DNA of 64,000 bases, from assembly GCA_900315845.1 (NCBI GenBank), contig OOHK01000001.1:124001-188000 (forward strand), in the 5' to 3' direction. The notes below the pieces were generated by a model. The model did no database searches. It worked only from the letters and a program-made list of their open reading frames with translations, and had not been told where the DNA came from. A program made the position numbers and the translations under genes. Shown here in pieces: positions 35,333 through 56,520 of this stretch (the first letter of the stretch is position 1; each line of letters begins with the position of its first letter). This stretch comes from Candidatus Avelusimicrobium luingense. Lineage in GTDB: Bacteria > Elusimicrobiota > Elusimicrobia > Elusimicrobiales > Elusimicrobiaceae.

Positions 35333-36289
35333 ATGCCACTTATAGAAGCCGTACCCAACATCAGCGAAGGGACTGATCAAAATATTATTTCGCATATTGT
35401 TTTCGCCGCACAAACAGCGGGCGCATGTGTGCTTAACGTAGACAGTAACGCCGATGCCAACCGCACGGTTATTACGTTAGCGGGCGAACCGCAAAAGGTA
35501 GTACAAAGTGCATTTGCCCTGATACAAAAAGCGGCGGAACTGATTGATATGCGCACACAAAAAGGAGTGCACCCGCGTTTGGGCGCGACGGACGTATGCC
35601 CGCTCGTGCCGGTACGGGATATTTCCATACAAGAAACCGCCAAATTGGCCGACGAACTGGCCCGGCGCGTAGCGAACAAATTAAACATCCCCGTTTATTT
35701 ATATGAAGAAAACGCACGAGAAAAAACACGCCGAAATTTAGCATTTATTCGTCGGGGCGAGTATGAAAGTTTGCCTGAAAAATTGCGTACACTCTCCCCC
35801 GACTACGGCCCGCAAACATGGAATGAAAGCATAGCCAAAACCGGGGCAACGGTTATCGGGGCACGTAAATTTTTAATTGCGTTTAATATGTCACTTAACA
35901 CGCAAGACGTGGCAACTGCGCGCAAAATGGCCGCGCAACTACGTGAAAAAGACGGCGGATTAAAATGCGTCAAAGCAATCGGATGGGATATGCCCGCGTA
36001 TCGTTGTGCGCAAGTATCCTGCAACTTAACAGACTTTACACAAACCGGTCTAGCCGAAGTTTTTGAAACGTGTAAAAAATTAGCCGCCGCGCACGGCCTA
36101 AAAATTACCGCCGGAGAACTGATCGGCCTTGTACCGCAAGATGCGTTATTACAGGCGGGAAAATTTTATGCCCCAAACGAAAAAAATACCGCCGCGCTGT
36201 TAAACGCGGCAGTAGAAAATTTACTTCTTAACAAGTTGCGCCCGTTCAACACGCAAGAGCGTGTGCTGGAACAAGTGTTAGAAATTTAA
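35333..36289 (+). CDS. glutamate formimidoyltransferase (FtcD N-terminal domain protein)
   Basis: The start at 35333 (MPLIEAVPNISEG) is the canonical family start. The protein transfers a formimino group between formiminoglutamate and tetrahydrofolate, in histidine degradation or formyl-folate supply. Motifs are EAVPNISEG, DSNADANRTVIT, KGVHPRLGATDVCPLVP and FLIAFNMSLNT. The length of 318 aa equals the transferase half only; the cyclodeaminase half is absent. A TATAAT (35321-35326) ends 6 nt before the ATG and no ribosome site is visible, so it is probably leaderless. The last 12 bp overlap the convergent pilin gene. Confidence 0.92.
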   Translation: MPLIEAVPNISEGTDQNIISHIVFAAQTAGACVLNVDSNADANRTVITLAGEPQKVVQSAFALIQKAAELIDMRTQKGVHPRLGATDVCPLVPVRDISIQETAKLADELARRVANKLNIPVYLYEENAREKTRRNLAFIRRGEYESLPEKLRTLSPDYGPQTWNESIAKTGATVIGARKFLIAFNMSLNTQDVATARKMAAQLREKDGGLKCVKAIGWDMPAYRCAQVSCNLTDFTQTGLAEVFETCKKLAAAHGLKITAGELIGLVPQDALLQAGKFYAPNEKNTAALLNAAVENLLLNKLRPFNTQERVLEQVLEI

Positions 36290-36793
36290 CGTCTTACACA
36301 CTTTTTGACCAAAAGATGTGTTTCCCACACAAGTGCGTTCATTAGGCGTATCTGAATGTTCCAACCAAACCGTATAAATAAAATCCGAATTATCCCGGCA
36401 AGCAGCCCATGCACTCCCGCCCACCGTATTTCCGTTGGCTCTGATTTTTTCCGGGCAATAATATGCCCGCAACGTCGGGTCGGTATTGTGAAGCGGGTCT
36501 ATCATAAAATAGGAACCGCATTGAACGACATCTATATAGATTTGCTTACAAGTATCCATATTGATCGTTAACACGTCCATATCGTATGTATAAGACCCTT
36601 CCTTCAAATAATATTCTTCTTCCGCTTTTTGAAGGGCCGATAACGCCGGAAAGACAGCGGCCAACCTGCTTTTGGCTACCGCCAATTTGTACTGCGGCAA
36701 CGCCACAGAAGCCAATATCCCTATAATCAGTACAACCACCAATAATTCTATTAACGTAAACCCTTTCAGACGGCCCGATACTTGTTTCTTCAT
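36278..36793 (-). CDS. type IV pilin-like protein (171 aa)
   Basis: The leader MKKQVSGRLKG has the cleavage site G|FTLIELLVVVLIIGILASVALPQYKLAVAKS. AEEEYYLKEGSYTYDMDVL follows, and the head ends with ERTCVGNTSFGQKVCKTLNF, the same Cys-x(n)-K-Cys outline as the other pilins. AAAAGGAG precedes the ATG. An upstream stretch AAATTTTACTTGACA is identical to one upstream of the 888-1430 pilin. The 3' end overlaps the convergent formimidoyltransferase gene. Confidence 0.9.
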   Translation of the reverse strand: MKKQVSGRLKGFTLIELLVVVLIIGILASVALPQYKLAVAKSRLAAVFPALSALQKAEEEYYLKEGSYTYDMDVLTINMDTCKQIYIDVVQCGSYFMIDPLHNTDPTLRAYYCPEKIRANGNTVGGSAWAACRDNSDFIYTVWLEHSDTPNERTCVGNTSFGQKVCKTLNF

Positions 36794-37639: not shown

Positions 37640-39334
37640 CTAGTTATCCGTTAAAATTTTCAAATTGCGTTTAGCCGTTTTATTATTCGGGGCGATCTCC
37701 AGTGCGCGGTGGTAATAATTTTTGGCAGATTCGTCGTCATCGGCAATAACGGCAGCCGTGCCTAACCCTAATTGTGCCAGAGCATCCGTCGGGGCTTGTG
37801 TAGCGGCTTGTTCAAACGATTTCCGCGCCGCCTCTGCATTTCCTTTGGCAAGTGCGGCTAACCCGGTAAGAAGCGAACACATATTTCCCCCGCACGTCAT
37901 TTCCTGCAATTCTTCTTCGGCCTCACTTACAAATTTAAGCCACGTACGACCCATCACCCATAACCCCATATCGTTGCCGACGATACGCGGATCATAAACG
38001 GCCTTGGGCGCGGTAGGACGGTTTTGTGTAAGGGCATTCGGAGCGGCATAATCGGCTGTGCGGCCTTGCAAAGATAAATTCACTTGATAACCTTGTGGGG
38101 CTTCGCTAACTACTTGGCGCACAGCCGCCGCGAAATTTTCTACTTGTTTAGCGCGCACATCCGCCGAAACGGCGGGCAACGTAAACGTGCGCTTAAACGC
38201 ACGCGCGGCCGGAGCATCTTCTTTGAGCGTATTTCCCGACGACATACGCATTTTTTGATATTCACGCTCAAAACTAGTAGAGGCATGGCCTTTAGGTAAC
38301 GTATTTTCTTGCGGTGGCTCATATTCCAAGCCCACCTCAATTTGCACCGGCTTTGACGCAGATACTTTAGATAAACTTTGTGTAAATTGTTCAATTTGTT
38401 TTTCAAACGCTTGAGCCGACGAGCCGCTTGCGCGGTAGGCCACGTTTAAGGCCAGCCCCTCTTGATTAAATTTAGCAATAGAAAAGGCTTCGTCTAACAC
38501 GTCGCGCGCGGCTTTTTCGTTATTTTGCCGCACCAAAAGTAGCGCATAACGTAATCGTGCGACGTAATCGCCCGGTTTTGTTTTGACGGCTTTTTTGTAA
38601 AACTTGAGAGCGTCTTGGTATCTACCCATATTTTCATACAACGCGGCTAAACTAAGTTGAGCATCTTCGTAGGCGGAAAAATAGTGAAGGGCTTGCTTGA
38701 ATGATGCTTCGGCTTGCGTGTCGCGCCCGAGTGCTTCATACAAGGTGCCTAACTGGTAATGATACAACGGCTCGCGCGGGGCGAGTTCACTGGCGCGGCG
38801 GAAGTGTTCCAATGCTTTTTCCAACTTGTTTTGCACCGCATAGGTAGAGCCTAAATTCATATTCGTATCGGCTTTGTTAGGGTCTAATTTATTCGCGGTT
38901 AAGAAGTGCTCTTGGGCGGTAGAAATATCCCCTTTCCACCCGGCGGCAATTCCCAAAAGTTGGTAAGCCATCGCATTGTTAGGGTCTAGGCGCAACGCCT
39001 CATTATATTCGCTAATAGCATCGTCCACTTTCCCGGCCCAGTATAAAGACGCCCCCAATAACAAATAGCCCATAGGATCTTTGGCATTTTTGATGACGGC
39101 TTTAGCAAAACTGTTTGACGCCTCTTGATAGCGGGCTTGGCTCATTTCGCCCATACCGCGGCGGATATCGCCGATGGCTTGGTCGTGCATGATTTTATCC
39201 CACACGGTTTGGGAATAATCGGTTTTAATGGTGGGTTTGCTAAAGGAAAACGGAAACCGCGCCCACCCCGGTAACGAGAGCGTGCAAAAGCACACCGCAA
39301 CAAAAGTGATATGAAAAATTTGTCTGACCGTCAT
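37640..39334 (-). CDS. exported tetratricopeptide-repeat protein (564 aa)
   Basis: The signal sequence (IFHITFVAVCFCTLSLPGWA) is followed from residue 60 by at least six TPR units with the A-x-x-P-x-x pattern (for example AMGYLLLGASLYWAGKVDDA, ALRLDPNNAMAYQLLGIAAGW, DAQLSLAALYENMGRYQDAL). A long middle segment without repeats precedes a final TPR pair near residues 495-560. It is a periplasmic scaffold or assembly factor. Its position beside the Tad-type locus makes a role in that machine possible, but it also abuts rsmA and may be unrelated. Confidence 0.8.
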   Translation of the reverse strand: MTVRQIFHITFVAVCFCTLSLPGWARFPFSFSKPTIKTDYSQTVWDKIMHDQAIGDIRRGMGEMSQARYQEASNSFAKAVIKNAKDPMGYLLLGASLYWAGKVDDAISEYNEALRLDPNNAMAYQLLGIAAGWKGDISTAQEHFLTANKLDPNKADTNMNLGSTYAVQNKLEKALEHFRRASELAPREPLYHYQLGTLYEALGRDTQAEASFKQALHYFSAYEDAQLSLAALYENMGRYQDALKFYKKAVKTKPGDYVARLRYALLLVRQNNEKAARDVLDEAFSIAKFNQEGLALNVAYRASGSSAQAFEKQIEQFTQSLSKVSASKPVQIEVGLEYEPPQENTLPKGHASTSFEREYQKMRMSSGNTLKEDAPAARAFKRTFTLPAVSADVRAKQVENFAAAVRQVVSEAPQGYQVNLSLQGRTADYAAPNALTQNRPTAPKAVYDPRIVGNDMGLWVMGRTWLKFVSEAEEELQEMTCGGNMCSLLTGLAALAKGNAEAARKSFEQAATQAPTDALAQLGLGTAAVIADDDESAKNYYHRALEIAPNNKTAKRNLKILTDN

Positions 39335-39444: not shown

Positions 39445-42400
39445 CTAATGTCTACTGGAACTTGCCGAACCTGGCCCGTTTGGAGCAATGTTCGGGGTGA
39501 CATTACCAGTAGTGGCTACCGCTTGATCCGCAGCCGGATTACCTTTGTATTTACTTATAAGTCTCGGATCGGCTTTAGGCATCACATTATCACCGTGATC
39601 GCACAAGCGGGTAATATATTCCAACACCTTGGCATGCGTCACCGTTTCTCCGACTGCATACTTACACGGCTCGTAATTTGTTAAGTCGTCATAAATACGC
39701 TGGAATTCCAGACGGTTTTTGTTGTCGCTTTCTGTCAATTGAGTTTTACTGGTTGCTAACAATTTTTCACGCTCCAACTCATTAAGCGGCAAACCGTGCC
39801 ACGGACTAGAAGGATCGTCAATTTGCTGCACATAGTAAGAACGATTTCCTACTTCCGTATAACCGCCCCACCAATACGGTGTTCTAATACTGAAACGCAG
39901 ATCCCAAATACGAGTTCCGCTCTTGTCATAGGTTTTTTGGGTCGGGCGCGACGCAGCATCATACGTAATGAATGCCATAAACGCACCGAACAAGTTATCA
40001 AACCCTTTCTCTCCATTAGCCGGAGCCTTAGCGTAACCACCAATGGTTTTACCTAATAAGCAGACCGTATTTTTCGGTACTGTACCGTTATTAGGATCCA
40101 TCAAGATAGCATCTACCAAGTTAGGTACAGTCAAACCGACGTCATTATAGGATAAAGCAATTCCATTCGGTCTGTTTTCTCTATCAAACTTTTCCTTGGC
40201 TGCTTTAAAATACGCTATTGTTTCACTATCTAATTTCAACAAAGGCGTACCGTCGGTAATTTTGCAATTATCCCACTTTTTGTTAGACGCCACACGATTC
40301 GGGTCTTCGGTGTCGGGACGCTCATTGGGATCCAACGGACGATTCGACAACGCCTTAAACGAGTTAATAAAGTAGGCCGATTTCGTTACCGGTGGGTTGC
40401 CCTTCGGATTCGGATTATCGTCCGGATTCGAATCATCGTCCGGATTCGGTTCCTGACAATTCGGATCCACCTTATAGGGTGCAGACCACTTGCCTCTTTC
40501 GCATTTTTTGGCCCATTCACAGACCTGGTCACCTTGTTTTGGCAATTTTACGATATCCCCGTCCGTGCAATCGTTTGTACCGGGGTTTTTCGTAACAACT
40601 TCGGCATCGCCATAGTAACAAGTGGCTTCACTGACCACGTTACCGGGTAAACTTTGACCGGAATATCCTACAAAATTACCATCTTTATCCGTTTTAACAA
40701 GTTTGCCGACGTTACAACCGCCTTTGCTTACGCCGTTACCACTAAAGAGCAAATCACCGCATTGGCGTACTTGCCAAGAAACGATGACCCGATCGTATCC
40801 TTGCGCGTGCAACTTTTCAACGGTATGTCTAGCCGCCACAGTTGCCGGATTATCTTTAGAGAACTCTTGGGTACCTAACGGGTACCATTGTGTCTTTTCG
40901 CTCGTGATGGTAGACTCTGTCTCATTGCCGGGGGCATTGTTTTGCCCTTGAATAGTATAAGATACCACGAAACGATCTTTCATTTGGTCATAGGCATGTT
41001 GGTCCGTCATATCGCCATATGACTTTAAGTAAGCGAGAGGACGACCCAGCCCGTCTTGGGAACCTTCATCCGTCTTTCCTACTAAGTCACAACTAATACG
41101 CGCTAACGGATAAGGACAGCGACCTCCGGTTACCCAATGTTTACCCGCTTTGCCACCGGATAATTCACGAGCTCTCTCCGGCGTATTCGCGGCAGCATCA
41201 CGCGACACGACAATTCCGCCGTTACGCAATTTTTCCATAAAATCAACATAGAGCATTCCTTCATCTGTGGCAGGATTGAGTTGCGGTGCATCGTCATCAC
41301 CCTGGCCGGAAGTCCCTTTTTGTTGATGTTGATCTCTACTAATTTGCGCTAAACGGGTTTGAATATTAGTAATCATTTGACGACATTGTTGTCGTTCTGT
41401 TTCCGTAGTAGCATGTATCAATTTATTTTCCCACATGCTCAAATCACTACGTAATTGTTTTTCCTCTTGCGTAGCACTACTATCGCCAGAAGATTTTTTA
41501 GATGGCGCAGAGGCGTCTTTGATTTTGCTTTGATAAATCGCCGCGCTTTCAATAAACAACGGAATGCCTTTGATATTTACATCACTGGCTTTCGCGTTAT
41601 AAAGCGGCGTTTCACGCAAATACAGAATCGTCCACAAGGCAGCCTGTTCTGTAGGTTCGGTTGTGCCGTAATACTTATCTACTTTATTATGCGGAATACC
41701 GACCACATATACCCACGTCGTCCATTTATCTTCTTTACCTTCGGTACTTGTCAATTGCGGGCGATACAAGCCATCCATCTTGAACGATTCACAAGAAGTA
41801 GCCGCATCCAAATCGCCTTTTTCCGCAGTAAACATATTGCGTAATTTTTGCGACAACCACGCACCGTTTCCACCTAAACAAGAGAAACGTTGACCAAAGA
41901 ATCCAAGACGGACATCACTGGCATTGCCTTTTGGTCCTTGCCAACCTCCGGCACATACCTCCGGGTGGCTAGCAGCAAATCCTTTACAAGCATCTTCTGA
42001 GAAAGGAATAGAATCGGAACCGATAAAACCAGCCCATCTCGCTTCTTTTTGTCCGCAGCAAGTAGCTTCCTTAATTGTTGCCCCGGCACCACTTCCTAAG
42101 AAGGCATCAACATCTCCACCGGAATCACCGGTCAACAGACAGAAAGCAAGACCTTTACCAACCGTCAGCAAGATTTCATCTAACGTGTCAATATACTTCC
42201 ACATACGGTTGAAATGTCTTTCCCATTGCATTTGGGAACGGGTTTTCATCAAGTCCCACCACCACGGTTTTTCACCGCTGTAGTTGAACTCACGATGTAA
42301 GTTACCGTTGCCGCCGCCCGGGCCGCCGAAATCGCCACCCATAATACCACCGATTTGACCGGGTTCGGGTTGTCTCATTTGAGCGTCCATAAGGGCTTGC

Positions 42401-43218
42401 ATGGCATTACCTTTAGACATGGCATCTTTGGAGCGTTGCGCTTCTTTGGCCCATTGAGTACCACCAAAGTATGAGCGCGACGGTTTCCCCGCCGCTTGCA
42501 ACGGTTGTAAAGATACCGGTTTAGGGCTGTTTTGCGGGCCGGCATTGCGAACTTTATTCGCCGCATTTTTCATATTGCCGCCGTATCTTTCGCCCAGTCT
42601 GCCCCCGTTACCACGAGCCATACCGGCTGTACCTAATTTATTGATTTTGGTAGCCGCACGTTTAAAAGCAGCACGCGTAGCGGCTGGGGCTTTCTTACGA
42701 AGTTTGTAAATGTTCTTGATGTTGGTTTCTTCGTCCATATCATTACGGGCATATGAAGAATTAGCCGACGAATCAGACAGACCGCTACGATAAATTTCAT
42801 CTAACGAATCCGTCCCTTCTTCTTCGTTGCTGCGGCGTTTACCAAACCCCACGATTAAATCCATAGAATCGCGGCCGGACAATTGTGCAATTTGACCTTC
42901 CGGATCCGTTCCTGTAAAATCAAAACCGGAGCGATCGGGGTTCAAGATGGCATCATCGTAAGACGGAGTAACCATAGTCGGTTCGTCTTCCACTTGTCCG
43001 CTGTACTTATACAAAAACGGCAGTAATAACAACGCCACTAACGCTGCAATAAAGAACGGCGCATCACGTTTGGTGCGCTCAAAGAGCGTTTGGTGGGGCT
43101 TGCCATCGCTACCGATTTTGGAGGTAATACGATTACCGAAAGATTTAGAAGCAGCTTGTTTGCTCTGCTTAATCTTATCGCTAAAGGTGAAACTCTCCTT
43201 CTTTTTTTCCTCTGGCAT
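39445..43218 (-). CDS. giant single-span membrane protein of the Tad-associated locus (1257 aa)
   Basis: I recognise no family. A 50-residue Lys-rich cytoplasmic tail is followed by one helix at about residues 54-70 (FFIAALVALLLLPFLY). A Gly/Asn/Arg-rich segment (residues 130-340) and a large ectodomain of about 900 residues with some 20 cysteines follow. A coiled-coil-like patch near residue 600 (EEKQLRSDLSMWENKL, QQCRQMITNIQTRLAQ) and an Asp/Asn/Pro repeat near residue 925 interrupt it. An AGGAGG site precedes the ATG. It has its own promoter at 43395-43422 and a 170-nt leader. It is the last gene of the secretion locus and most likely an extracytoplasmic structural subunit. Confidence 0.75.
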   Translation of the reverse strand: MPEEKKKESFTFSDKIKQSKQAASKSFGNRITSKIGSDGKPHQTLFERTKRDAPFFIAALVALLLLPFLYKYSGQVEDEPTMVTPSYDDAILNPDRSGFDFTGTDPEGQIAQLSGRDSMDLIVGFGKRRSNEEEGTDSLDEIYRSGLSDSSANSSYARNDMDEETNIKNIYKLRKKAPAATRAAFKRAATKINKLGTAGMARGNGGRLGERYGGNMKNAANKVRNAGPQNSPKPVSLQPLQAAGKPSRSYFGGTQWAKEAQRSKDAMSKGNAMQALMDAQMRQPEPGQIGGIMGGDFGGPGGGNGNLHREFNYSGEKPWWWDLMKTRSQMQWERHFNRMWKYIDTLDEILLTVGKGLAFCLLTGDSGGDVDAFLGSGAGATIKEATCCGQKEARWAGFIGSDSIPFSEDACKGFAASHPEVCAGGWQGPKGNASDVRLGFFGQRFSCLGGNGAWLSQKLRNMFTAEKGDLDAATSCESFKMDGLYRPQLTSTEGKEDKWTTWVYVVGIPHNKVDKYYGTTEPTEQAALWTILYLRETPLYNAKASDVNIKGIPLFIESAAIYQSKIKDASAPSKKSSGDSSATQEEKQLRSDLSMWENKLIHATTETERQQCRQMITNIQTRLAQISRDQHQQKGTSGQGDDDAPQLNPATDEGMLYVDFMEKLRNGGIVVSRDAAANTPERARELSGGKAGKHWVTGGRCPYPLARISCDLVGKTDEGSQDGLGRPLAYLKSYGDMTDQHAYDQMKDRFVVSYTIQGQNNAPGNETESTITSEKTQWYPLGTQEFSKDNPATVAARHTVEKLHAQGYDRVIVSWQVRQCGDLLFSGNGVSKGGCNVGKLVKTDKDGNFVGYSGQSLPGNVVSEATCYYGDAEVVTKNPGTNDCTDGDIVKLPKQGDQVCEWAKKCERGKWSAPYKVDPNCQEPNPDDDSNPDDNPNPKGNPPVTKSAYFINSFKALSNRPLDPNERPDTEDPNRVASNKKWDNCKITDGTPLLKLDSETIAYFKAAKEKFDRENRPNGIALSYNDVGLTVPNLVDAILMDPNNGTVPKNTVCLLGKTIGGYAKAPANGEKGFDNLFGAFMAFITYDAASRPTQKTYDKSGTRIWDLRFSIRTPYWWGGYTEVGNRSYYVQQIDDPSSPWHGLPLNELEREKLLATSKTQLTESDNKNRLEFQRIYDDLTNYEPCKYAVGETVTHAKVLEYITRLCDHGDNVMPKADPRLISKYKGNPAADQAVATTGNVTPNIAPNGPGSASSSRH
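40403..40448 (-). repeat. short tandem repeat inside the 1257-aa protein gene
   Basis: A degenerate unit around ATCGTCCGGATTCG recurs three times, encoding a NPDDDSNPDDNPNP linker in the ectodomain. It is a candidate for length variation between strains. Confidence 0.7.
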
Positions 43219-43441: not shown

Positions 43442-44989
43442 TTACCACAACAAGGCGCCTCTGTTCACACGGATACTGCGTCCCCAATTTACACCGGGGA
43501 AATATTCGGTATTCAAACCACCCGTTTCGGTATATAACCGTCCTTTGATTTGGCCGTCATCCCCATCTAATTCGCTACTATTGTAGGTAGGGCAACCTTC
43601 TTCACATTCCGAATAATCATCCGTAGAAAACAACCCGTTTACCGCATTAATACAGGCCTGGGCCTCATCTCCTTCCAATCCATCACACTCGGCTAATTTG
43701 GCCTGACAATAGGCATCAAATACCGTATAATAAGCCGCTAATTGCTCAAAACGACATTGTCCGTTGTCCAACACCAGCGAAAGCGTACCGCATACCCGTT
43801 GGGCTGATTCATAGGCACTTTTCATTTGTTGGCAACCGTTTATAATACTTTGCAATTGGCTCATATATTCGCCGGGACGGGCACCGCAGGTTTGCGGAAA
43901 TTTTTCTGCCAAATGATTAATTCTATCGGCTAATGCACTCGTATTCATTTGCTGTCCGGCATGTGTCAGTGCTTGTTGGCAATTTTTATCTTGGTCTAAA
44001 TAATCTTGTACACCGGATATATCGGCATTCATTTCGTCTGCTTTAATTGCTACCCCGCCAAAGCCCGAAGCGGTAAATACCGTACGAGGCAATTCCGCCC
44101 CGTCAAAACTGGCAGATGCTAAAGTTTTTTTAAGTAATAATTGCGGAGTGCGCCGGGCCGCACGCCCCATCATCCATGCCCAATACATATCACGTTGGGC
44201 ACGCGAATCGCCTACGCGGTTTATTGCTCCAATTTGGGCTAGTGCCGTACTAGTGCGGTCATCTTTTTTAATAAATTCCGATAAATCCACGTCACTACGA
44301 ATAGCCCGATCCACCTCCCGATCAAACCAATCGGTTCCTTTAGATACCCCGGCAATCGGTAATTTCGTGGCTTTTTTTAACGTATTGACAGAATTAAACG
44401 CATCATTTTTATCCCGTCTGATACCGGATGCATCTTCTCCGAAGAACACATCACCATGCATGGCCGCCTCGTTGGCTTGAGTTTGTGCGGTAGGATTATC
44501 TTTTGTCAAACGAACGACAGTTTTATTCTGACCGGAACTATTACGACGTCCGTCTATTTCGGCCGCTAAATCTTCATACACACCTACTAAATGATCCCCT
44601 TTTTGTCCACGTTTGGCAAGGGCAGCATTAACGGCACGAATATCTATCAATTTATTCTTTGCGAGATCTTGCGTAGAATTAAAAGCCCCCCCGAGAGAAC
44701 CAAACACATTCACCTCATCGGGATCCGGTATTTCTCCGCGCATCATTTTGCTGTGTTCATTCCAAGAGAATAAGGCTTTTAGAAAAGAAATCCGATGGGC
44801 TTCATCCGGGCTGTATCCCATAGCGTACACTAAATCACGCAACAAGGGAATTTTTCCTACCGGGACAAGTCCCCCCACCCCCAATAAAAGTAACAAAACA
44901 ACCAACACGCTCCATAATTTTTTGGAGCGCAACCACGCACGCGTTTCTTGCGTTTGCGAAGATGTTGGAGTTGGAGAGGATGTATTCAT
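43442..44989 (-). CDS. membrane-anchored Cys-rich protein of the Tad-associated locus (515 aa)
   Basis: The N-terminal cytoplasmic tail is rich in Ser, Thr and Pro. One transmembrane helix lies at about residues 25-43 (LWSVLVVLLLLLGVGGLVP), and the remainder is extracytoplasmic. A segment LPRTVFTASGFGGVAIKADEMN resembles the FLAS-x-SGG module of the 510- and 526-aa neighbours. The C-terminal 170 residues contain ten cysteines, suggesting disulphide-stabilised helices. No known family was recognised. It is probably a structural part of the Tad-type apparatus. Only about 55 bp separate it from the 510-aa gene, so it is likely in that operon. Confidence 0.75.
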   Translation of the reverse strand: MNTSSPTPTSSQTQETRAWLRSKKLWSVLVVLLLLLGVGGLVPVGKIPLLRDLVYAMGYSPDEAHRISFLKALFSWNEHSKMMRGEIPDPDEVNVFGSLGGAFNSTQDLAKNKLIDIRAVNAALAKRGQKGDHLVGVYEDLAAEIDGRRNSSGQNKTVVRLTKDNPTAQTQANEAAMHGDVFFGEDASGIRRDKNDAFNSVNTLKKATKLPIAGVSKGTDWFDREVDRAIRSDVDLSEFIKKDDRTSTALAQIGAINRVGDSRAQRDMYWAWMMGRAARRTPQLLLKKTLASASFDGAELPRTVFTASGFGGVAIKADEMNADISGVQDYLDQDKNCQQALTHAGQQMNTSALADRINHLAEKFPQTCGARPGEYMSQLQSIINGCQQMKSAYESAQRVCGTLSLVLDNGQCRFEQLAAYYTVFDAYCQAKLAECDGLEGDEAQACINAVNGLFSTDDYSECEEGCPTYNSSELDGDDGQIKGRLYTETGGLNTEYFPGVNWGRSIRVNRGALLW

Positions 44990-45043
44990 AAATTAAAAAG
45001 ACAGGGAAATGCGCCTTTAGGCGCACTTCCCAAATACTCATTA

Positions 45044-46576
45044 TTATTTTCCGTTATTATTAGAATTATTCTGATTGCTTGTATCGGTTGTAGAGGAATT
45101 GGATTTAACAACCATCTTAAGAGCATTGGCGCCCATATCAATTCCTTTTCCTGCCACCGTTTTAAGCGCGCCACCGATATTTTCTTTAATAAAGGCTTGG
45201 ATGCTTTCCGGTTTTAACATGGCAAATGCAATGCCGGCAGCGGTAAGTCCGCTCAGGATAGAACCCACCCATACAGACCAAGATGAATCGTCCGGAAAGT
45301 TATTATGGAATCTCACGGCTTTTGTCATCATAGCACTTGCAAACCATACCATTACACCGGCCACAAGCCCGGAACCAATCCATTTAACATACGGGTTCGG
45401 TATTTTTTGTAAATAAGCAATGGCTATCACACCCGCAATTGCCACTCCTAAGGTCAGGAGCATCCATTTGATAACTTCAGACATGGCATCATTCCGTGTC
45501 TTTAAGGAATTATTAATATCCGAAAGTCCTCTCTTTAGACCTCTAAGTTGGGGTGCTTCTGTAGATTTGAAATCAGCAGAACCGACTCTTTCGGCATCAG
45601 CCATTCCGCTATCCATGCTGATTCCACCCGAATTTTGTGCCGAGGCTAAAAAGGCGCGCCCGGCTTCGGTATTAGAGGCATTGCCTTGTCCGGCCAAACG
45701 GGCGGCATCCGCAGAACGCTTGGAGATATCGGCTAATTCGCCTTTGACGGCACCGGACTGGCTGCCCTTCGCTACGGTTGCGCGTGTAGTCCCCGCCATA
45801 AAGTGTGACGAACTGCGTCCGTCTGCACCGCTTAATGAAACAGGATTGGTACCGCTGGGCATAGCCCCGGAGAAATTATAAGAAGAACCACTTGATTTTC
45901 CGCCGGACGAGCGCGAAGATCCGTTACGGGAACCGCCGGACGAACTACCGGAAAAATTGCCGTAAGATGCATTAATACCACTACCGGAGGCACGCGTCAT
46001 AGAGGCTGTTCCTAACGAGGCAATTTGAGTTGGCTCGGAAGAATGGCTTCCACTTCCTCTTGACGTAGAATAATTTGCATCACCCGATCCGTTTGCACGC
46101 GGAGAATATGAATGGCTGCTGACACTGTTTTGTCCACCTTCTGTTGAATTTCCTGACGAATATCCGGACAAATCCACATCAGGGCTTTTACCTAACCCTT
46201 CTGTTTCACCCAAAGAGGACCCTCTTCCCACAAAAGAAGAAGCGACCTTAGCATCCATATTATCCGCCGCCGACAAACCGAAATCACCCACTTCGGATGA
46301 ATTTCTTTGCGAGGTTTGTATGGTGCCTGTCTCATCGGACACATTGATAGAAGTAAGCCCTGTACCGTTGTCCGTATAGTGCATACTTCCGTAATCAAAA
46401 TTATTGGAAACAGATGATAAAGACCGTACCGCCATGTTTTGGGAATCACCGGGCTCTACCAAGTTTTGCATTACGGTTGCCCCGATAATACCCACACCGG
46501 CAGATATCAAGAGCGCTTTTTGCGTACTCATGGCCAATTTTCCGGCCTTGTTTTTAAGCAGATTAAACCAATTCAT
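45044..46576 (-). CDS. Ser/Gly-rich membrane protein of the Tad-associated locus, paralogue A (510 aa)
   Basis: The N-terminus MNWFNLLKNKAGKLAMS plus a helix (residues 20-38) aligns with the start of the 526-aa protein. The middle 250 residues are Ser/Gly/Asn-rich, with TEGLGKSPDVDLSG and TRASGSGINASYGNF. A module KRSADAARLAG...TEAGRAFLASAQNSGG follows near residue 300. Three C-terminal helices end it (MLLTLGVAIAGVIAIAYL, WIGSGLVAGVMVWFASAMM, WVGSILSGLTAAGIAFAML). It starts 2 bp after the 94-aa gene. The architecture is shared with paralogue B. Function is unknown; an inner-membrane subunit with a flexible exposed loop is likely. Confidence 0.75.
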   Translation of the reverse strand: MNWFNLLKNKAGKLAMSTQKALLISAGVGIIGATVMQNLVEPGDSQNMAVRSLSSVSNNFDYGSMHYTDNGTGLTSINVSDETGTIQTSQRNSSEVGDFGLSAADNMDAKVASSFVGRGSSLGETEGLGKSPDVDLSGYSSGNSTEGGQNSVSSHSYSPRANGSGDANYSTSRGSGSHSSEPTQIASLGTASMTRASGSGINASYGNFSGSSSGGSRNGSSRSSGGKSSGSSYNFSGAMPSGTNPVSLSGADGRSSSHFMAGTTRATVAKGSQSGAVKGELADISKRSADAARLAGQGNASNTEAGRAFLASAQNSGGISMDSGMADAERVGSADFKSTEAPQLRGLKRGLSDINNSLKTRNDAMSEVIKWMLLTLGVAIAGVIAIAYLQKIPNPYVKWIGSGLVAGVMVWFASAMMTKAVRFHNNFPDDSSWSVWVGSILSGLTAAGIAFAMLKPESIQAFIKENIGGALKTVAGKGIDMGANALKMVVKSNSSTTDTSNQNNSNNNGK

Positions 46577-46578
46577 AG

Positions 46579-46863
46579 TTACTCTCCTTGTCTTCTAAAA
46601 CTGTCCACTGCATTTTGGACGCCTTCCCGCGCCGATTGTTCTTCCAATATCTGCCGTTCATAAGCGGCTTGACGACGGATACGTTCTTGTTGCAAATAAA
46701 TCTGCTGCTCTCGCTCTTGCCTTAATTCCCGCAAGATACGATATTCGTTATATATTGCAAAAATACTACCGAAGAACCATCCCAACACCAGTATAATAAT
46801 TATTATACGCGGGATAACATTGTATTTATTCCAAGGTAAAATATTCCATTTTCCAATACGCAT
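46579..46863 (-). CDS. small single-span membrane protein with coiled coil (94 aa)
   Basis: One helix (VIPRIIIIILVLGWFFGSIFAIY, about residues 16-38) is followed by a highly charged heptad-like stretch (EYRILRELRQEREQQIYLQQ, then ERIRRQAAYERQI), a probable coiled coil of about 45 residues. It resembles the bitopic septum/secretion organisers in outline only; there is no family match. It sits between the two paralogous Ser/Gly-rich genes with very short gaps, so it is expected to act with them. Confidence 0.75.
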   Translation of the reverse strand: MRIGKWNILPWNKYNVIPRIIIIILVLGWFFGSIFAIYNEYRILRELRQEREQQIYLQQERIRRQAAYERQILEEQSAREGVQNAVDSFRRQGE

Positions 46864-46872
46864 ATCTTACCT

Positions 46873-48453
46873 CTACGGGAAAAACTTTTGCATAAAGATA
46901 TCAAACATACCGCTGGAACTTCCACCGGCAGCACCTTCCGTCCCTGCCGCTTCAGCAAGTCCGGCCGTTTGGGCACCGTTTTCAACCCCAGCGAAAATTT
47001 TAGTCAGCGCATCAATGGCTTTTTGTACACCCTCACTTACGTTATACAGTAAGGAGAGTATCAAGGCCGCTCCACCGATACAACCTGTTAACCCGGCCAG
47101 CGTACTTAACCAACCGCCGCCATGATTGTTGGCATATTGCGCAGACTCATAAATCAGTTTAGCACACAACGCTAAACCGGCCGCCACGGCGATTCCTACC
47201 GCTACCCAAAGCACAATATTCCACGGGTACGGAGCCGCTTTGGCAGCATTGGACAACCAGAAAATAACTTTACATAAAGCATACACACCCGCCACGGTAC
47301 CAAGCCATAACAGAATTAAATTATTCATATCAGTATTTAATTCATCTAACGGATCTATGATCGTCGGATCGGCGACGAAGTCCCGAGCCGCTTGTATTTG
47401 AGCGTTGGTGCTTGAGGAGAAATCTTTAGATCCTTTCCCTTCGCTTGTATTAATATGTTCGGCCCCAATCATTAAACCGCCCGAAATTTGCGTGCTGGCC
47501 AAAAAGACGTTCCCTTCCGTATTGTGACGGTTTTTATTTGCGGCCACGTCAATAGAACGCTTGGTAAAAAATTCCAAATCATCTTTACCTTTTTGAGCAT
47601 TACGGCCACGCATAACAGTAGCATCTCTGCTTTTACCTAATCCTTCATTTTTACCAAAAGAGGCCTTGGCTTTGATTTGGGTGCCTTCCATCGCCCCATT
47701 CATCATATTTTGAGCGTGGGATAATATGCCTTGCACGTCAGAAGCATTCATATTTGCTTGGCCATTTTTACCGCTATTTTGCAAGACGAAAGAGGAACCG
47801 CCACCACCGGAACCGCCGCCGGAACTACTACCCGACCGCCAACCGGGGGTAGCACTGGCTAATGTAGGCGCCTCTTTTTTGGTTGCGCCTTTGCCTTCTT
47901 TATCTTTGGCTTGTGCTTGGGCTTGTTGTTGGGCATTGGCGATTGCACCTTTAATATTGGCCATCTGTGACGTCATGGCACCCATAGAACCGCCTGTCAA
48001 AAGTTGTTGGTCAACCGCATTAGCCCCCATACCTAATCCTTCGGTTTGGCCTAATTGGTAAGCCGAGCCATCAATAGGCGCAGCCATAGCCATTTCGGCT
48101 TCATTTTCGGCCATTTCTTGAGCGGCACGTTCGGCTAATTCTTGATTTTCTAACAATTTAAGCGTTTTAGCAGAGACGCGCATAGAAGAACCCGGTTCAC
48201 CCGTAGAGCGATCCAATTTTCCCCGATATGCATTTCCGGCATAACTACCGGTATTTGCACCGGACACATAGACGACTTCCCCCGGGTTATATTGTCCCGC
48301 CGGGTTAAACGCCGTATTATCATCGGAAGAAGAGCCTAAAAACTGATAGGCGGCTACTGCTCCCGCACCGACAACGGCCGTTAACCCTACTGCCTGTAAG
48401 GCAGACAGGGCTATTTTACCGCTACGGCTTGCTAATTTTTTTAAGATATTCAT
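46873..48453 (-). CDS. Ser/Gly-rich membrane protein of the Tad-associated locus, paralogue B (526 aa)
   Basis: It has the same layout as the 510-aa protein: MNILKKLASRSGKIALSALQ with a helix (18-37), then a long Gly/Ser/Ala/Gln-rich region (SGGGSGGGGSS; AQQQAQAQAKDKEGKG). KNEGLGKSRDA and FTKRSIDVAANKN...TEGNVFLASTQISGG follow, and three C-terminal helices (residues about 375-485). A tail ends GMFDIFMQKFFP. The shared landmarks argue for duplication. An AGGAGG site precedes the ATG. The absence of cysteines in the exposed part contrasts with the 515- and 1257-aa proteins. Confidence 0.75.
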   Translation of the reverse strand: MNILKKLASRSGKIALSALQAVGLTAVVGAGAVAAYQFLGSSSDDNTAFNPAGQYNPGEVVYVSGANTGSYAGNAYRGKLDRSTGEPGSSMRVSAKTLKLLENQELAERAAQEMAENEAEMAMAAPIDGSAYQLGQTEGLGMGANAVDQQLLTGGSMGAMTSQMANIKGAIANAQQQAQAQAKDKEGKGATKKEAPTLASATPGWRSGSSSGGGSGGGGSSFVLQNSGKNGQANMNASDVQGILSHAQNMMNGAMEGTQIKAKASFGKNEGLGKSRDATVMRGRNAQKGKDDLEFFTKRSIDVAANKNRHNTEGNVFLASTQISGGLMIGAEHINTSEGKGSKDFSSSTNAQIQAARDFVADPTIIDPLDELNTDMNNLILLWLGTVAGVYALCKVIFWLSNAAKAAPYPWNIVLWVAVGIAVAAGLALCAKLIYESAQYANNHGGGWLSTLAGLTGCIGGAALILSLLYNVSEGVQKAIDALTKIFAGVENGAQTAGLAEAAGTEGAAGGSSSGMFDIFMQKFFP

Positions 48454-48522
48454 AAAGTCCTCCTTGCTGCTTGTTACTACTTACTTATTAAAAACGCTGG
48501 CACTTCTTTTCGATTCTTTTCA

Positions 48523-49719
48523 TTAAGCCAAATTATTCATGTCATCTCCATGCAAATCATCGGGGATCGTATCATCATCTCTACTATCTCCGCCAGGAGG
48601 GGTTGGATCATCCGGGACGGGATCAGAAGGAGGCGTGGTATGACTCGGAGTAGTGGACGGAGTAGTCGTTGGGGTGGATGACTTATTACCACCGCCGCTT
48701 GATTTATCACCGCCACTACTTGACTTATCACTGGCGCCGGAACTACTGGGCGTGACACCGAAAGCCTTATCTATGGCTCTGTTAGCCGTATTGGTTAAGA
48801 TGGTCTTACCGACATCAATCGCCGCTAACAATAATTCTTCTCTCATTTTTTCCGGCCATGTTTTTTCATTGCGTTTATCCTCTTCCTCTTTTTCTTTTTG
48901 GGCTTTTTGAGTGGCATCTTTTAAATCTTGTTCTAAATTACTCAAATCAGGAGTAACAGGGGCTTCGGTATCAATAGCAAGGCCTTGGGCTTTACTTAAA
49001 TCAATTGCCCCATCTTCAAAGGCTTCACTGCCTGCGATATCGCCCCCCATCAGTGCCCGTTTGGTATTTCCACCTTTACCGTCTTTCAGCCCGGCAGCGG
49101 CCTGACTTCCGCGCGCGAACTGGTATAACGCTTTGCGTGCATCTTGGTTCTTAAATTGAACGGGGCGTTCCGAGCCTTTATCTTGGCTTCTATACGGCGA
49201 AAAATCCCCACGAGGGGAACCCCAAGAACCATTTATTCCACCGCCACTGGCCCGTCCAACACTGCTTGAACTCAATTTATTTACTTGAGTGGGAGTGGCC
49301 GGGGAAGATTTGCCGTAACTGCGGGGACGATAACTATGCGAAGTAGGAGCAGGAGACGAACTTTCCCGAAATGATTGGGCCGTTTCTTCCTGTTCAATTT
49401 CTTCCTCGGCATCTTGGGCTTGGCGTTCTTCTTTTTGTTGGGAAGAATATAATAAAGTAGAATTGTTTCCTTGCATATCGGGATATTTAGAGGCCAGTAA
49501 ATATTGTTCGGCTTCGTCGTTCACAAAGGGCATTTGGGCCAAATCGTATCCACGAGATTCTAACCCGCTAAAAGATTGGTCTTGCGCATCACCCATCAGC
49601 GAAGACAACGTAAAAAAAGCCACAATCAATACGACGGCTACGGCGCCCCACGTATAGGCTTGCTTATGGCTCATAGAATTGGCTTTTTGAAATACATTGC
49701 CCGGTTTTAACTTAAACAT
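48523..49719 (-). CDS. Ser/Pro-rich single-span protein of the Tad-associated locus (398 aa)
   Basis: The short basic N-terminus and one helix (residues 23-41, WGAVAVVLIVAFFTLSSLM) precede a low-complexity ectodomain. It has an acidic Gln/Glu stretch near residue 95, then GRASGGGINGSWGSPRG, matching TRASGSGINASYG of paralogue A. A KALYQFARGSQAAAG segment, a coiled-coil-like KDATQKAQKEKEEEDKRNEK and a Ser/Gly/Thr/Pro tail ending in Asp-rich DDDTIPDDLHGDD follow. No family was recognised. It is the first gene after the strong promoter at 49816-49844 and so leads a separate structural-gene operon. Confidence 0.72.
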   Translation of the reverse strand: MFKLKPGNVFQKANSMSHKQAYTWGAVAVVLIVAFFTLSSLMGDAQDQSFSGLESRGYDLAQMPFVNDEAEQYLLASKYPDMQGNNSTLLYSSQQKEERQAQDAEEEIEQEETAQSFRESSSPAPTSHSYRPRSYGKSSPATPTQVNKLSSSSVGRASGGGINGSWGSPRGDFSPYRSQDKGSERPVQFKNQDARKALYQFARGSQAAAGLKDGKGGNTKRALMGGDIAGSEAFEDGAIDLSKAQGLAIDTEAPVTPDLSNLEQDLKDATQKAQKEKEEEDKRNEKTWPEKMREELLLAAIDVGKTILTNTANRAIDKAFGVTPSSSGASDKSSSGGDKSSGGGNKSSTPTTTPSTTPSHTTPPSDPVPDDPTPPGGDSRDDDTIPDDLHGDDMNNLA

Positions 49720-49815: not shown

Positions 49816-49844
49816 AGTATAAAGAGATAATAGGGTTTTGTCAA
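49816..49844 (-). promoter_or_regulatory. near-consensus sigma70 promoter for the structural-gene block
   Basis: On the minus strand TTGACA (49844-49839), a 17-bp spacer and TATACT (49821-49816) are seen. The start site would be near 49809, about 90 nt before the ATG at 49719. It is the best promoter in the right half of the window. Confidence 0.85.
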
Positions 49845-49914: not shown

Positions 49915-50457
49915 TTATTTTCCTTCCGGACGCATATACGGGGCAGGCCGTTCATTATGCCCGACATATTTTTTCACTTCAATCTGCCCACCTGTTTCAC
50001 ACAAGAAAGCATATCCTTTCAAACACATATTGTCTGTTTCACATACGCGATCTTTATTATAATTGCACAGAAAACGAACATGTGGCGGTTTCGTATTAGC
50101 CGTAAGCGTAATTTGTGTCCATGTACCGGTACGTATGATCTCCATCTTAAGTTTATTTAAACTTAAAAATTTACGCATACCCGGATTATCAAACCCTAAA
50201 TAATTTTCTATCTTTTTTTGGATATCTTTTTCTAAAAACCGTTTATCCCACGTACGTTGGTAATAATCGGTTTCATGGGATTGCAGTTGAAAACGACGCG
50301 CCGCATAAAAACCCGCTACTTCCATTTTTTGACTCAAAACTAAAAGACCGAAAATTTTGATAATAAATAAAATAAATATAATAAAAAACGGAAACAGCAA
50401 CACCACTTCCGTCGTGGCTTGCCCTTTACGTGAACGTAATGAAGATATTAACCTCAT
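49915..50457 (-). CDS. TadE-like pseudopilin (180 aa)
   Basis: The N-terminus MRLISSLRSRKGQATTEVVLLFPFFIIFILFIIKIFG has the TadE pattern: a basic stretch, G|QATTE with the conserved Glu five residues in, and a hydrophobic helix. The cleavage site resembles that of the Flp pilin encoded at 51614-51790. The rest is a small extracytoplasmic domain with a C-terminal cysteine group. It follows the 397-frame TadG-like gene by 2 bp. Confidence 0.82.
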   Translation of the reverse strand: MRLISSLRSRKGQATTEVVLLFPFFIIFILFIIKIFGLLVLSQKMEVAGFYAARRFQLQSHETDYYQRTWDKRFLEKDIQKKIENYLGFDNPGMRKFLSLNKLKMEIIRTGTWTQITLTANTKPPHVRFLCNYNKDRVCETDNMCLKGYAFLCETGGQIEVKKYVGHNERPAPYMRPEGK

Positions 50458-50459
50458 AG

Positions 50460-51608
50460 TTACGGCTCCAACCGCACATTATATTTGGGTAACGGATTAG
50501 GCCACACGCAGTTATTATTCCCGCGCGGACAAGTTAATTTAACCCGATTTCTAACAAACGGCTTATATTTTTGTTCTAAATTGATATTAAAAATATTACG
50601 CGGCAAACTAAATGATTGTTTAAGTAAAACACCCCGTCCCAACGTTTTAAGTTTACTACGGCTTGCTTGGTCTAAATAAGCAAATTGAAACAAGGGTTCT
50701 TTCAAATCCGCCTCTGCATGGAAAACAATACCCTGCGCACCGTTATGCCATCCGTACTTGACACTATATTGGGAAATATAAAACATTACATCTTTTATAG
50801 TCATGGGTTTTGTTTGAATACCTAAATACTTGCGAAGTTGCGCAGCACTCTGCCGCCCACATTCACTAGGCTTACAAGAGGACACATTAAAAGAATATCC
50901 TTCCCGAAATGTAACTTCATTCTTACTCAGTTCTTTATAAGCATAATCTTGTGATTTATAAATAGAACCTACACGCACATACGTCTCCAAATAAAAGGAC
51001 ATGGCTGGCAAAGCAGGAGAGTTATCCATATCGTTTTCATCAGCATAAAAGAGATAATCTTCTGCTAATTTTTTGCTAATCAGCGGCAGCGGTTCGTCCA
51101 AAGGTTTTGGATTTTCCTTTTCCCACGCCGCACGGGAAAATTTAGGGTCGGTGTGCTCCCCTACTTTTTCAAAATACTTTAATCCCCAGTTTGTAGATTC
51201 GGCTGCCGGTGGCTTGTTGGTCCCGGCCTTGTCATCATAATTAGGGCCGATAGCAGGCACCCCCCCACCTTTATAAAACAAATCAAATACCGTAATATCG
51301 GGCAAAACACTTCTTTTGGAATCTTTCGGCCTAATTTTATGGGCATCATCTGCCATATATTGCATAACACGGTAAGGTAACGGCCCGTTGACCATAGCCA
51401 CGGAATTTAAGTAAGTGCTGACGGAAGATACCTGCGAATACGCCGCATTATCCAACGCAAACTGGTTACGTATTTTGGCCATGGACACTTTTGCCGTTTC
51501 AAACAATAAATATACTACTAAAGCAAAAATAGGGGCCAAAAGCACTGCAGGTAACAATACCTGTGCCTTACGCTCCCGCCATTTCCGATTCAGATAGTAT
51601 ATATTCAT
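50460..51608 (-). CDS. TadG/TadE-like pilus assembly protein (382 aa)
   Basis: The start at 51608 (MNIYYLNRKWRERKAQVLLPAV) gives the usual basic tail, KAQVLLPAVLLAPIFALVVYLLF hydrophobic helix and conserved Glu in LFETAKVSM, typical of Tad-locus TadE/F/G proteins. The 330-residue ectodomain has few cysteines and ends in a basic NNNCVWPNPLPKYNVRLEP. No von Willebrand domain of the long TadG type is obvious. An upstream in-frame GTG is possible, but it would overlap the Flp gene. It lies 5 bp downstream of the Flp pilin stop. Confidence 0.75.
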   Translation of the reverse strand: MNIYYLNRKWRERKAQVLLPAVLLAPIFALVVYLLFETAKVSMAKIRNQFALDNAAYSQVSSVSTYLNSVAMVNGPLPYRVMQYMADDAHKIRPKDSKRSVLPDITVFDLFYKGGGVPAIGPNYDDKAGTNKPPAAESTNWGLKYFEKVGEHTDPKFSRAAWEKENPKPLDEPLPLISKKLAEDYLFYADENDMDNSPALPAMSFYLETYVRVGSIYKSQDYAYKELSKNEVTFREGYSFNVSSCKPSECGRQSAAQLRKYLGIQTKPMTIKDVMFYISQYSVKYGWHNGAQGIVFHAEADLKEPLFQFAYLDQASRSKLKTLGRGVLLKQSFSLPRNIFNINLEQKYKPFVRNRVKLTCPRGNNNCVWPNPLPKYNVRLEP

Positions 51609-51613
51609 AGTTT

Positions 51614-51790
51614 TTATGATGTCAGCAATTTGCCCACAAAAATAAATAACCACCGTACCACATCGGTATGAAAAGCCGTAAAGAACGCCGAGATGACCAC
51701 TACAATACTGGCCAGCATCAACACGTACTCTATCGTGGCTTGCCCTTTTTTAGCGGCCGAGCCCTTTTCACGTTGTAAGATACGAAACAA
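51614..51790 (-). CDS. Flp-type pilin (58 aa)
   Basis: The frame runs from the TTG at 51790 to the TAA at 51614-51616. GGAG lies 6 bp before the TTG, inside the last codons of the response-regulator gene; the two genes are one base apart. The product MFRILQREKGSAAKKG|QATIEYVLMLASIVVVISAFF is a class III (Flp) prepilin: Gly before the site, Glu at +5 of the mature chain, and a long hydrophobic helix. The head is very short (HTDVVRWLFIFVGKLLTS). It is the main pilus subunit candidate of the Tad system. Confidence 0.85.
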   Translation of the reverse strand: MFRILQREKGSAAKKGQATIEYVLMLASIVVVISAFFTAFHTDVVRWLFIFVGKLLTS

Positions 51791-55575: not shown

Positions 55576-56520
55576 TTAGCAACTGCCGGACGGAGCGGCC
55601 GGTACACCGGAGGCTGCATTCGGGTTGAAAAATTCAAAACCCGGGATTTGCGAAGCCGTATCTAATCCTACTTGAACTTTACCTTCCCAAAGCAACGTCG
55701 GAGACGCACTGACGCCAAATTCTTTAGCATATTTGGCTTCTTCTTTAAGAAGTTCCAAGCCTTCGCTGTCAAACTTTTTCATGATTTTTTTGACATTGAT
55801 ACCCGCTTCTTCCATGGCTTTGTCCCAACGGCTGGAGCGGTAATCTTTATTACGGATTTCCAAATATTTCCAGAATTGTTCCGGATAGTATTTGGCAATT
55901 AACAATTGGCGAACGTTTTCTTCCCATTCACCCGAACCATGCAAACTGTCAAATCCGCGGTCAGCGGTATAGTTTACAATATAGCGCACACGGACAGTTT
56001 TGTCTTTGGGGAACGTCCCGTTCTTTTTGGCTTGGATAATAAAATCTTCAGCACGCACACCATAAGGGCATTGGGACATTACAAACAATTCCATAACGCC
56101 CGGTTTGGCCGGTTTATTATTATATACCCCTTGACGGGTTTGATGGGCTAAAACAATAAAATCATCTGTTTCTTGAGCCGCACCATATTGAAGCGGTTGC
56201 TCCATTTTGGCACGAATGGCTTTCGTTTTTTTAATTAAATAAAGCGGTAAGAAACTATAATCTAATCCCTTAAGTTTCGGGTCGTTTGTCACTTGAGAAA
56301 CGGAAATACGCTTGACTTCCGGTTCTGCTTCTAAGAATTGCCCTAACCCTTGCGTAAGCAATTCGTCTTCTTTCCCGGCAGCATAATCGTCAGATTCTAC
56401 AACGATCATTTCCGCTTTCGGTTTAGCCTGCGTTTTAGCAGGAGTATTTTTTTGAGCGGTAGCCGCAACAGCTACGCCCGCAATTACTAATGCGGCTAGT
56501 AAAACATATATTTTTTTCAT
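55576..56520 (-). CDS. exported thioredoxin-fold protein with CPYG motif (314 aa)
   Basis: The signal peptide MKKIYVLLAALVIAGVAVAA directs it to the periplasm. Residues 20-135 are low in recognisable motifs. From residue 142 a thioredoxin-like fold begins (GVMELFVMSQCPYGVRAEDF), with CPYG at 151-154 in the active-site position: a single cysteine, not CxxC. The cis-Pro loop is likely SASPTLLWEG. The last residues are GSC. It resembles GILT/DsbA-like proteins in layout. The neighbouring structural proteins are cysteine-rich, so a thiol or isomerase role is plausible. Confidence 0.75.
   Translation of the reverse strand: MKKIYVLLAALVIAGVAVAATAQKNTPAKTQAKPKAEMIVVESDDYAAGKEDELLTQGLGQFLEAEPEVKRISVSQVTNDPKLKGLDYSFLPLYLIKKTKAIRAKMEQPLQYGAAQETDDFIVLAHQTRQGVYNNKPAKPGVMELFVMSQCPYGVRAEDFIIQAKKNGTFPKDKTVRVRYIVNYTADRGFDSLHGSGEWEENVRQLLIAKYYPEQFWKYLEIRNKDYRSSRWDKAMEEAGINVKKIMKKFDSEGLELLKEEAKYAKEFGVSASPTLLWEGKVQVGLDTASQIPGFEFFNPNAASGVPAAPSGSC

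What the first reader, a model, noticed from the sequence alone, without database searches (positions are those of the whole stretch)
43442..49719. A paralogous set of membrane-anchored low-complexity proteins in a Tad-type locus
Seen: the 510-aa and 526-aa proteins share N-terminal MN..LL...GK.A.S plus helix, an EGLGKS element, a KRS-D-A ... TE-x-x-x-FLAS-x-Q-x-SGG module and three C-terminal helices. The 398-aa protein shares RASG-x-GIN-x-S-x-G with the 510-aa one, and the 515-aa protein has a looser VFTASGFGG version of the FLAS module. None matches a family I know. They sit directly downstream of Tad pilin, TadE/TadG and regulator genes. Inference: gene duplication built a set of structural subunits for an undescribed Tad accessory or surface assembly.
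Basis: partly seen in the sequence, partly recalled or inferred. Interest (0 to 1): 0.82.

Follow-up and report, generated by a model that had tools for sequence, protein, structure and literature searches.

The report
Shared-module protein set beside Tad pilus
Gut Elusimicrobiota carry, next to the genes for their Tad pilus, a conserved block of six membrane-anchored proteins of no known family, partly built by copying one protein and one small module, which probably form an undescribed accessory assembly in the cell envelope.

Summary
The five ORFs exist at the stated places, and the 1257-aa ORF after them belongs to the same block. Only the 510- and 526-aa proteins are full-length paralogues (profile E 9e-46; tree places the duplication in this lineage). 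The others are not whole-length paralogues. They share pieces: a ~25-aa motif (398, 510, 1257) and a ~40-aa helical module, supported by divergent relatives, reversed controls and leave-one-family-out ranking. The block follows TadG-TadE in 33 of 39 complete loci, in gut Elusimicrobiaceae only; the sister family has the same Tad operon, usually followed by one protein (X) with a weakly similar module. No Pfam or NCBIfam family, PDB sequence or PDB fold matches convincingly. Best reading (inferred): subunits of an inner-membrane-anchored periplasmic accessory assembly, most likely serving the Tad pilus, with p510/p526 re-entering the membrane and p515/p1257 presenting cysteine-rich ectodomains. 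The Tad link rests on position. The block can move away intact, and Tad is universal in the genomes tested, so co-occurrence proves nothing. A Tad-independent envelope complex stays possible; minor pilins are less likely (no class III cleavage motif). New variant of a known kind.

The parts
48523..49719 (-). p398: N-terminal TM anchor, acidic and Ser/Gly-rich periplasmic segment, motif B, module A
   Evidence: ORF; TM; orthologues
49216..49296 (-). motif B of p398 (TPTQVNKLSSSSVGRASGGGINGSWGS)
   Evidence: hhalign with p510 91% E 1e-6 and with p1257 70% E 4e-5; coordinates
49018..49143 (-). module A of p398 (DARKALYQ...RALMGGDIAGSEAF)
   Evidence: matched through divergent orthologues, leave-one-family-out ranking; coordinates
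46873..48453 (-). p526: N-terminal TM, S/G/A-rich linker, module A, three C-terminal TM helices; paralogue of p510
   Evidence: hhalign 100% E 9e-46; TMs; tree
47473..47577 (-). module A of p526 (...KRSIDVAANKNRHNTEGNVFLASTQISGGL)
47047..47328 (-). three C-terminal TM helices of p526
   Evidence: hydropathy
46579..46863 (-). p94: single TM plus charged coiled coil; absent or unrecognised in some relatives
   Evidence: ORF
45044..46576 (-). p510: N-terminal TM, motif B, module A, three C-terminal TM helices; paralogue of p526
45956..46036 (-). motif B of p510 (EPTQIASLGTASMTRASGSGINASYGN)
45620..45739 (-). module A of p510 (...KRSADAA...TEAGRAFLASAQNSGGI)
45218..45475 (-). three C-terminal TM helices of p510
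   Evidence: hydropathy
43442..44989 (-). p515: N-terminal TM, disordered linker, module A as helical hairpin, helical C-terminal part with 6 highly conserved Cys (4 invariant in 47 sequences)
44075..44194 (-). module A of p515 (RDMYWAW...LASASFDGAELPRTVF)
   Evidence: predicted helices 263-280, 284-296
39445..43218 (-). p1257: conserved basic cytoplasmic tail, TM, motif B, PWWWD element, large Cys-rich ectodomain
42577..42657 (-). motif B of p1257 (AATKINKLGTAGMARGNGGRLGERYGG)
   Evidence: enlarged p398/p1257 profiles 89%, E 3e-6; reversed control E 0.47
49816..49844 (-). possible promoter (TTGACA-17-TATACT) in the 195-bp gap between TadE and p398
   Evidence: consensus scan; not evidence of function
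45004..45031 (-). possible terminator after p510
   Evidence: consensus scan
49915..50457 (-). TadE-like gene (neighbour)
   Evidence: Pfam TadE 17.6 bits, below the 22.9 cut-off
50460..51653 (-). TadG-like gene (neighbour; assignment by position and N-terminal helix)
37640..39334 (-). TPR protein, frequent downstream neighbour

Best explanation
The block p398-p526-p94-p510-p515-p1257 encodes subunits of one envelope assembly. Each is anchored in the inner membrane by an N-terminal TM helix (N-in by the positive-inside pattern: inferred) and reaches into the periplasm through a flexible Ser/Gly/Ala-rich linker. The shared motif B and helical module A act as common docking elements that bring subunits together or onto one partner (inferred). 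p510 and p526 return to the membrane with three TM helices and form its base; p515 and p1257 carry cysteine-rich folded C-terminal parts. The assembly most likely serves the Tad pilus beside whose TadG-TadE genes it lies, as a periplasmic scaffold or surface-contact accessory. It may have expanded from one TadE-adjacent module-bearing protein resembling X of the sister family. Shown: anatomy, the p510/p526 duplication, shared pieces, synteny, family-limited distribution. Inferred: complex formation, topology, function with Tad, origin from X.
For: Conserved block order, TadE directly before p398 in 33 of 39 complete loci; same arrangement in other genera (L133-136; L165; TadE-p398-p510-p94-p515 in L170). 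Block moved as a unit in L087, L094 and L111. p510/p526 paralogy. Motif B links p398, p510 and p1257. Module A links the p510 and p515 families (95%, E 2e-8), and X/398/510/515 retrieve each other among the top ranks of 4930 ORFs. In the sister family the same Tad operon is directly followed by X in most loci read. TM anchors and cysteines. AlphaFold of p515: TM, disordered linker, helical hairpin, Cys-containing helical domain.
Against: No functional data. The block lies away from the Tad locus in E. minutum (G103) and several other genomes. Tad is found in all genomes tested, so co-occurrence is uninformative. Similarity of X to 398/510/515 is weak (hhalign at most 4% for D510-X; supported only by ranking). 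The profiles used for the ranking held few module sequences each (4 to 13), and their hits are related sequences, so ranks are not independent p-values. p1257 stands alone in some genera. A possible promoter and terminator suggest it is transcribed apart from the Tad genes.
Confidence: 0.5

Rival explanations
1. A Tad-independent envelope or surface complex: the block is a real multi-subunit assembly but its position after TadE is historical, and it works without the pilus.
For: Block relocates intact (L087, L111, L094); in L132, L138, L142, L168 and L169 it lies without Tad genes beside it; in E. minutum p515 sits with TPR and ksgA while p1257 is elsewhere. Tad is universal, so co-presence is not evidence.
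Against: TadE adjacency recurs in three genera, and the sister family usually has X at the same place.
Confidence: 0.27
2. Large minor pilins forming a variable Tad pilus tip, like the KilLMN Tips of Myxococcus (PMC12075869).
For: Position next to TadE/TadG; large cysteine-rich C-terminal parts; the Kil Tip paper describes large minor pilins with extra domains and many predicted disulfides.
Against: No class III prepilin motif (G then xxxxE) at the N-termini although the locus's Flp and TadE genes have it. p515 is predicted all-helical, without the beta-stranded pilin domain. p510/p526 have three C-terminal TM helices. No TadE/TadG profile match.
Confidence: 0.12
3. The apparent set is mostly compositional: unrelated low-complexity membrane proteins that happen to be neighbours.
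For: 42-56% of residues are S/G/A/T/N/Q in p398, p526, p510 and p515; direct p515 comparisons and p398-p526 are weak.
Against: p510/p526 match over 416 columns at E 9e-46; motif B and E510-E515 matches exceed reversed-profile controls; register is consistent across families.
Confidence: 0.06

Closest known systems
Tad/Flp pilus minor pilin tip complexes (TadE/TadF/TadG; KilLMN Tips, PMC12075869)
   Same: Encoded beside Tad genes; several membrane-anchored proteins with different large C-terminal parts; cysteine-rich
   Different: No prepilin cleavage motif, no TadE/TadG homology, long disordered linkers, three C-terminal TM helices in p510/p526, predicted helical p515
RcpC/CpaB Tad alignment complex (PMC12307814)
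   Same: Single N-terminal TM and periplasmic body, Tad-associated
   Different: No RcpC match; the locus has its own RcpC gene (PF16976)
X, the TadE-adjacent single-TM protein of the sister family of Elusimicrobiales (unnamed, found here)
   Same: Same genomic position in most loci read; single N-terminal TM in 6 of 7 by hydropathy; module A-like FDG helical segment
   Different: One copy, no motif B seen, no C-terminal TM triplet; sequence similarity below profile significance

Membership tests
Tad/Flp pilus locus (the neighbourhood) | TadA ATPase with TadB and TadC | tested here: met
   T2SSE 207 bits; T2SSF 63.8 bits in TadB; TadC recognised by position and by its match to tadB in some relatives, not by its own Pfam scan
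Tad/Flp pilus locus (the neighbourhood) | TadZ-like ATPase | tested here: met
   CbiA domain 33.6 bits at the N-terminus of the 776-aa TadA, above its cut-off of 25.4: a TadZ-TadA fusion
Tad/Flp pilus locus (the neighbourhood) | Secretin RcpA and RcpC | tested here: met
   PF00263 146.5 bits and PF16976 69.3 bits in L072
Tad/Flp pilus locus (the neighbourhood) | Flp pilin with G/xxxxEY | tested here: met
   Two small ORFs with GQTAIEY and GQNTIEY read in L072; no profile run on them
Tad/Flp pilus locus (the neighbourhood) | Prepilin peptidase TadV | not tested
   Not searched
Tad minor pilins (TadE/F/G, Kil Tips) for p398, p510, p526, p515, p1257 | Class III signal: G followed by xxxxE before a hydrophobic helix | tested here: not met
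   Read in the alignments of all families
Tad minor pilins (TadE/F/G, Kil Tips) for p398, p510, p526, p515, p1257 | TadE/TadG profile similarity | tested here: not met
   Pfam and hhalign against the local TadE and TadG families
Tad minor pilins (TadE/F/G, Kil Tips) for p398, p510, p526, p515, p1257 | Pilin fold: N-terminal helix plus beta-stranded globular domain | tested here: inconclusive
   p515 predicted helical; p1257 ectodomain mixed alpha/beta, pLDDT 73.5, no PDB match; others not modelled
RcpC/CpaB | RcpC profile match | tested here: not met
p510/p526 paralogue family | Whole-length profile match to the other member | tested here: met
   p510-p526 E 9e-46; not met by p398, p515, p94, p1257
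X-type TadE-adjacent proteins | Module A homologous to that of 398/510/515 | tested here: inconclusive
   Reciprocal top ranks but hhalign at most 4% at the module (D510-X)

The most novel reading that the evidence does not exclude
Gut Elusimicrobiota have an undescribed trans-envelope machine, built by repeated duplication of one TM-linker-helical-module protein, that either converts the Tad apparatus into a different device (for example contact-dependent or secretory) or is a separate surface organelle.
Probability: 0.2. Interest if true: 0.8.

Novelty: new variant of a known kind. Interest (0 to 1): 0.55.

Why it matters
It would add a lineage-specific multi-subunit accessory assembly to the Tad pilus family and give a concrete candidate for how abundant, barely studied gut Elusimicrobiota meet surfaces, hosts or other cells. 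It also gives a readable case of a protein set growing by gene duplication and module sharing at one genomic position.

Tried and rejected
Single-sequence searches of the sister family found no block homologue. The p1257 profile found nothing outside the family in 341 genomes of the phylum. Pfam and NCBIfam scans gave nothing above cut-offs for the block proteins (family-wide Pfam scans gave only scattered single-member hits). PDB sequence profiles for p510/p526 and p1257 found nothing credible. Foldseek of p515 and p1257 against the PDB gave no match with E <= 0.001. The p526 query has no phage match. Whole-family hhalign of the enlarged families blurred module A, so I used divergent families and segment profiles. 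A module A copy in p1257 was suspected by eye and in one long alignment but not supported by ranking; I claim only motif B there. Giant ORFs downstream of X in the sister family were considered as p1257 counterparts and not pursued. The G106 array after TadE (N-TM, Gly/Ser-rich, several C-terminal TM helices) contains its own paralogues (485/514 aa, E 1e-38) but no significant match to the block: architecture only. A Pfam call on A6 was too large.

Full report
WHAT IS THERE. The window is G000:C8:124001-188000 of a 1.46-Mb genome. On the minus strand a Tad-type operon runs from tadA (776 aa with its TadZ-like N-terminus, read in L072; it crosses the window's end) through tadB, tadC, TPR genes, a HAMP protein, a small membrane protein, a DsbA-like gene, two kinase/regulator genes, a response regulator, TadG and TadE. 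It is followed by p398 (48523-49719), p526 (46873-48453), p94 (46579-46863), p510 (45044-46576), p515 (43442-44989), p1257 (39445-43218), a TPR gene and ksgA. Upstream of the window lie secretin, RcpC, a TadE-like gene and two small Flp-type pilin ORFs. Consensus scans suggest a promoter before p398, a terminator after p510 and a promoter and terminator around p1257; these are pattern matches only.

KIN AND DISTRIBUTION. The genus includes G001, whose 24,791-base contig has the length of a record of Candidatus Avelusimicrobium excrementipullorum, so the window is probably from that genus. G103, a single 1,643,562-base contig, is by my own knowledge of its genome size Elusimicrobium minutum. 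p1257 is found in 63 of 66 genomes of the window's genus, 3 of 3 of g11 and 14 of 18 of g14, and in none of the single genomes of g12, g13 and g15 nor in the 251 genomes of the phylum outside the family. p515 is found in 80 of 90 family genomes. Of 39 loci with a complete block, 33 have TadE directly before p398. Of the other six, some begin at a contig edge; L087, L094 and L111 have other genes upstream, and L087 and L111 also lack the TPR-ksgA flank.

PARALOGY. p510 and p526 match over 416 columns (100%, E 9e-46; E 3e-56 with 46 and 43 sequences). In a FastTree of 39 sequences, p526 is a clade (support 1.0), p510 a weak clade (0.47), and together they exclude the homologues of other genera (0.76 for the joint node, 0.97 for the outgroup, midpoint rooting). 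The duplication therefore most likely happened in this lineage.

SHARED PIECES. Motif B (consensus TxVxxLxSASMxRASGSG) links p398 with p510 (91%, E 1e-6) and with p1257 (70%, E 4e-5); with enlarged profiles 77% and 89%, against reversed-profile controls of E 0.04 and 0.47. Module A is a ~40-residue helical segment, ending in FLASxxxSGG in p510/p526, ASFDGAE in p515 and AAFDG in divergent relatives. Divergent p510-like and p515-like families match there at 95%, E 2e-8 (reversed control E 0.56), and each is orthologous to the window family by profile (p510-E510 98%, 3e-14; p515-E515 99%, 1.6e-19; p398-E398 99.8%, 1e-30). When segment profiles of some families were used to rank all 4930 ORFs of the loci, the other families came first: 510+515 retrieved 398 and X at ranks 1-6; X retrieved 510 and 515 at ranks 1-6; 510+515+398 retrieved X at ranks 1-2. 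Individual scores are low (E 0.016 to 7), the segment sets were small and chosen with a pattern, and hits within a family are not independent, so this is supporting evidence, not proof. Some of the top hits of the 515 and 398 profiles lie outside module A. The p1257 family did not rank high for module A.

PREDICTED STRUCTURE. p515 (47 sequences): mean pLDDT 68.7, TM region, disordered 89-246 apart from short stretches, helices 263-280 and 284-296 at module A, then long helices carrying the conserved cysteines. p1257 residues 301-1257 (49 sequences): mean pLDDT 73.5, mixed alpha/beta. Neither has a PDB fold match with E <= 0.001. p398, p510 and p526 were not modelled.

EVOLUTION AND POSITION. 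In the sister family f2 the operon from tadA to TadE is conserved in most loci read, but the block is absent; in five of seven X-bearing loci X directly follows TadE, and in two an FtsH-like gene lies between. X is found in 52 genomes of the sister family and 3 of other families of the class, and in none of the window's family. In other family members the block varies: two p398-like genes and one p510-like (L133-136), TadE-p398-p510-p94-p515 (L170), blocks away from Tad genes (L132, L138, L142, L168, L169), and in E. minutum p515 beside TPR and ksgA with p1257 elsewhere. G106 has an array of Gly/Ser-rich membrane proteins after TadE with its own paralogues, similar in architecture only.

WHAT IT DOES. 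Single N-terminal TM anchors with basic residues on the N-terminal side, long low-complexity segments, three C-terminal TM helices in p510/p526 and 10 and 21 cysteines in p515 and p1257 suggest an inner-membrane-anchored periplasmic assembly with two cysteine-rich ectodomains. Whether it serves the Tad pilus is inferred from position: recurring TadE adjacency, and X at the same place in the sister family. Tad is found in 41/41, 9/9 and 12/12 genomes tested, so presence together says nothing. The Kil Tip paper (PMC12075869) describes TadE/F/G-type minor pilins as variable tips; the block proteins do not show the prepilin motif or a TadE/TadG match, so they are not filed as minor pilins. [quoted passage not shown] five paper searches listed no title or abstract that describes this block, in a library that lacks most subscription journals.

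Noticed in passing
L072 6312-11696 and 5289-6272 (upstream of tadA, outside the window): A 1794-aa protein with FlgD_ig (73 bits) and CHU_C (30.1 bits, above its cut-off) next to an outer-membrane protein weakly like PorV: possible type IX-like surface protein beside the Tad genes.
   Followed up: no
window 55576-56520: DsbA-like protein of the Tad operon whose active-site-like motif reads CPYG, with a single cysteine there and another at the C-terminus.
   Followed up: no
L160 and L161 (G106): After TadE, an array of Gly/Ser-rich membrane proteins (658, 485, 370, 514, 605, 674, 484 aa), some paralogous to each other (485/514), not detectably related to the window's block.
   Followed up: partly
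G002:C79:9524-11791: p1257 homologue with one in-frame TGA: pseudogene or assembly error.
   Followed up: no
L059 16287-18089, L067 15826-17436, L071 2804-4453: FtsH-like AAA protease gene directly after TadE in some sister-family Tad loci.
   Followed up: no
L060 2420-16000: Open frame of at least 4527 aa downstream of the Tad operon in a sister-family genome.
   Followed up: no
window 888-1517, 10684-11157, 23954-24496, 33084-33560, 36278-36793: Five scattered single genes for type IV pilin-like proteins with the FTLIELLVVVLIIG-type N-terminus.
   Followed up: no
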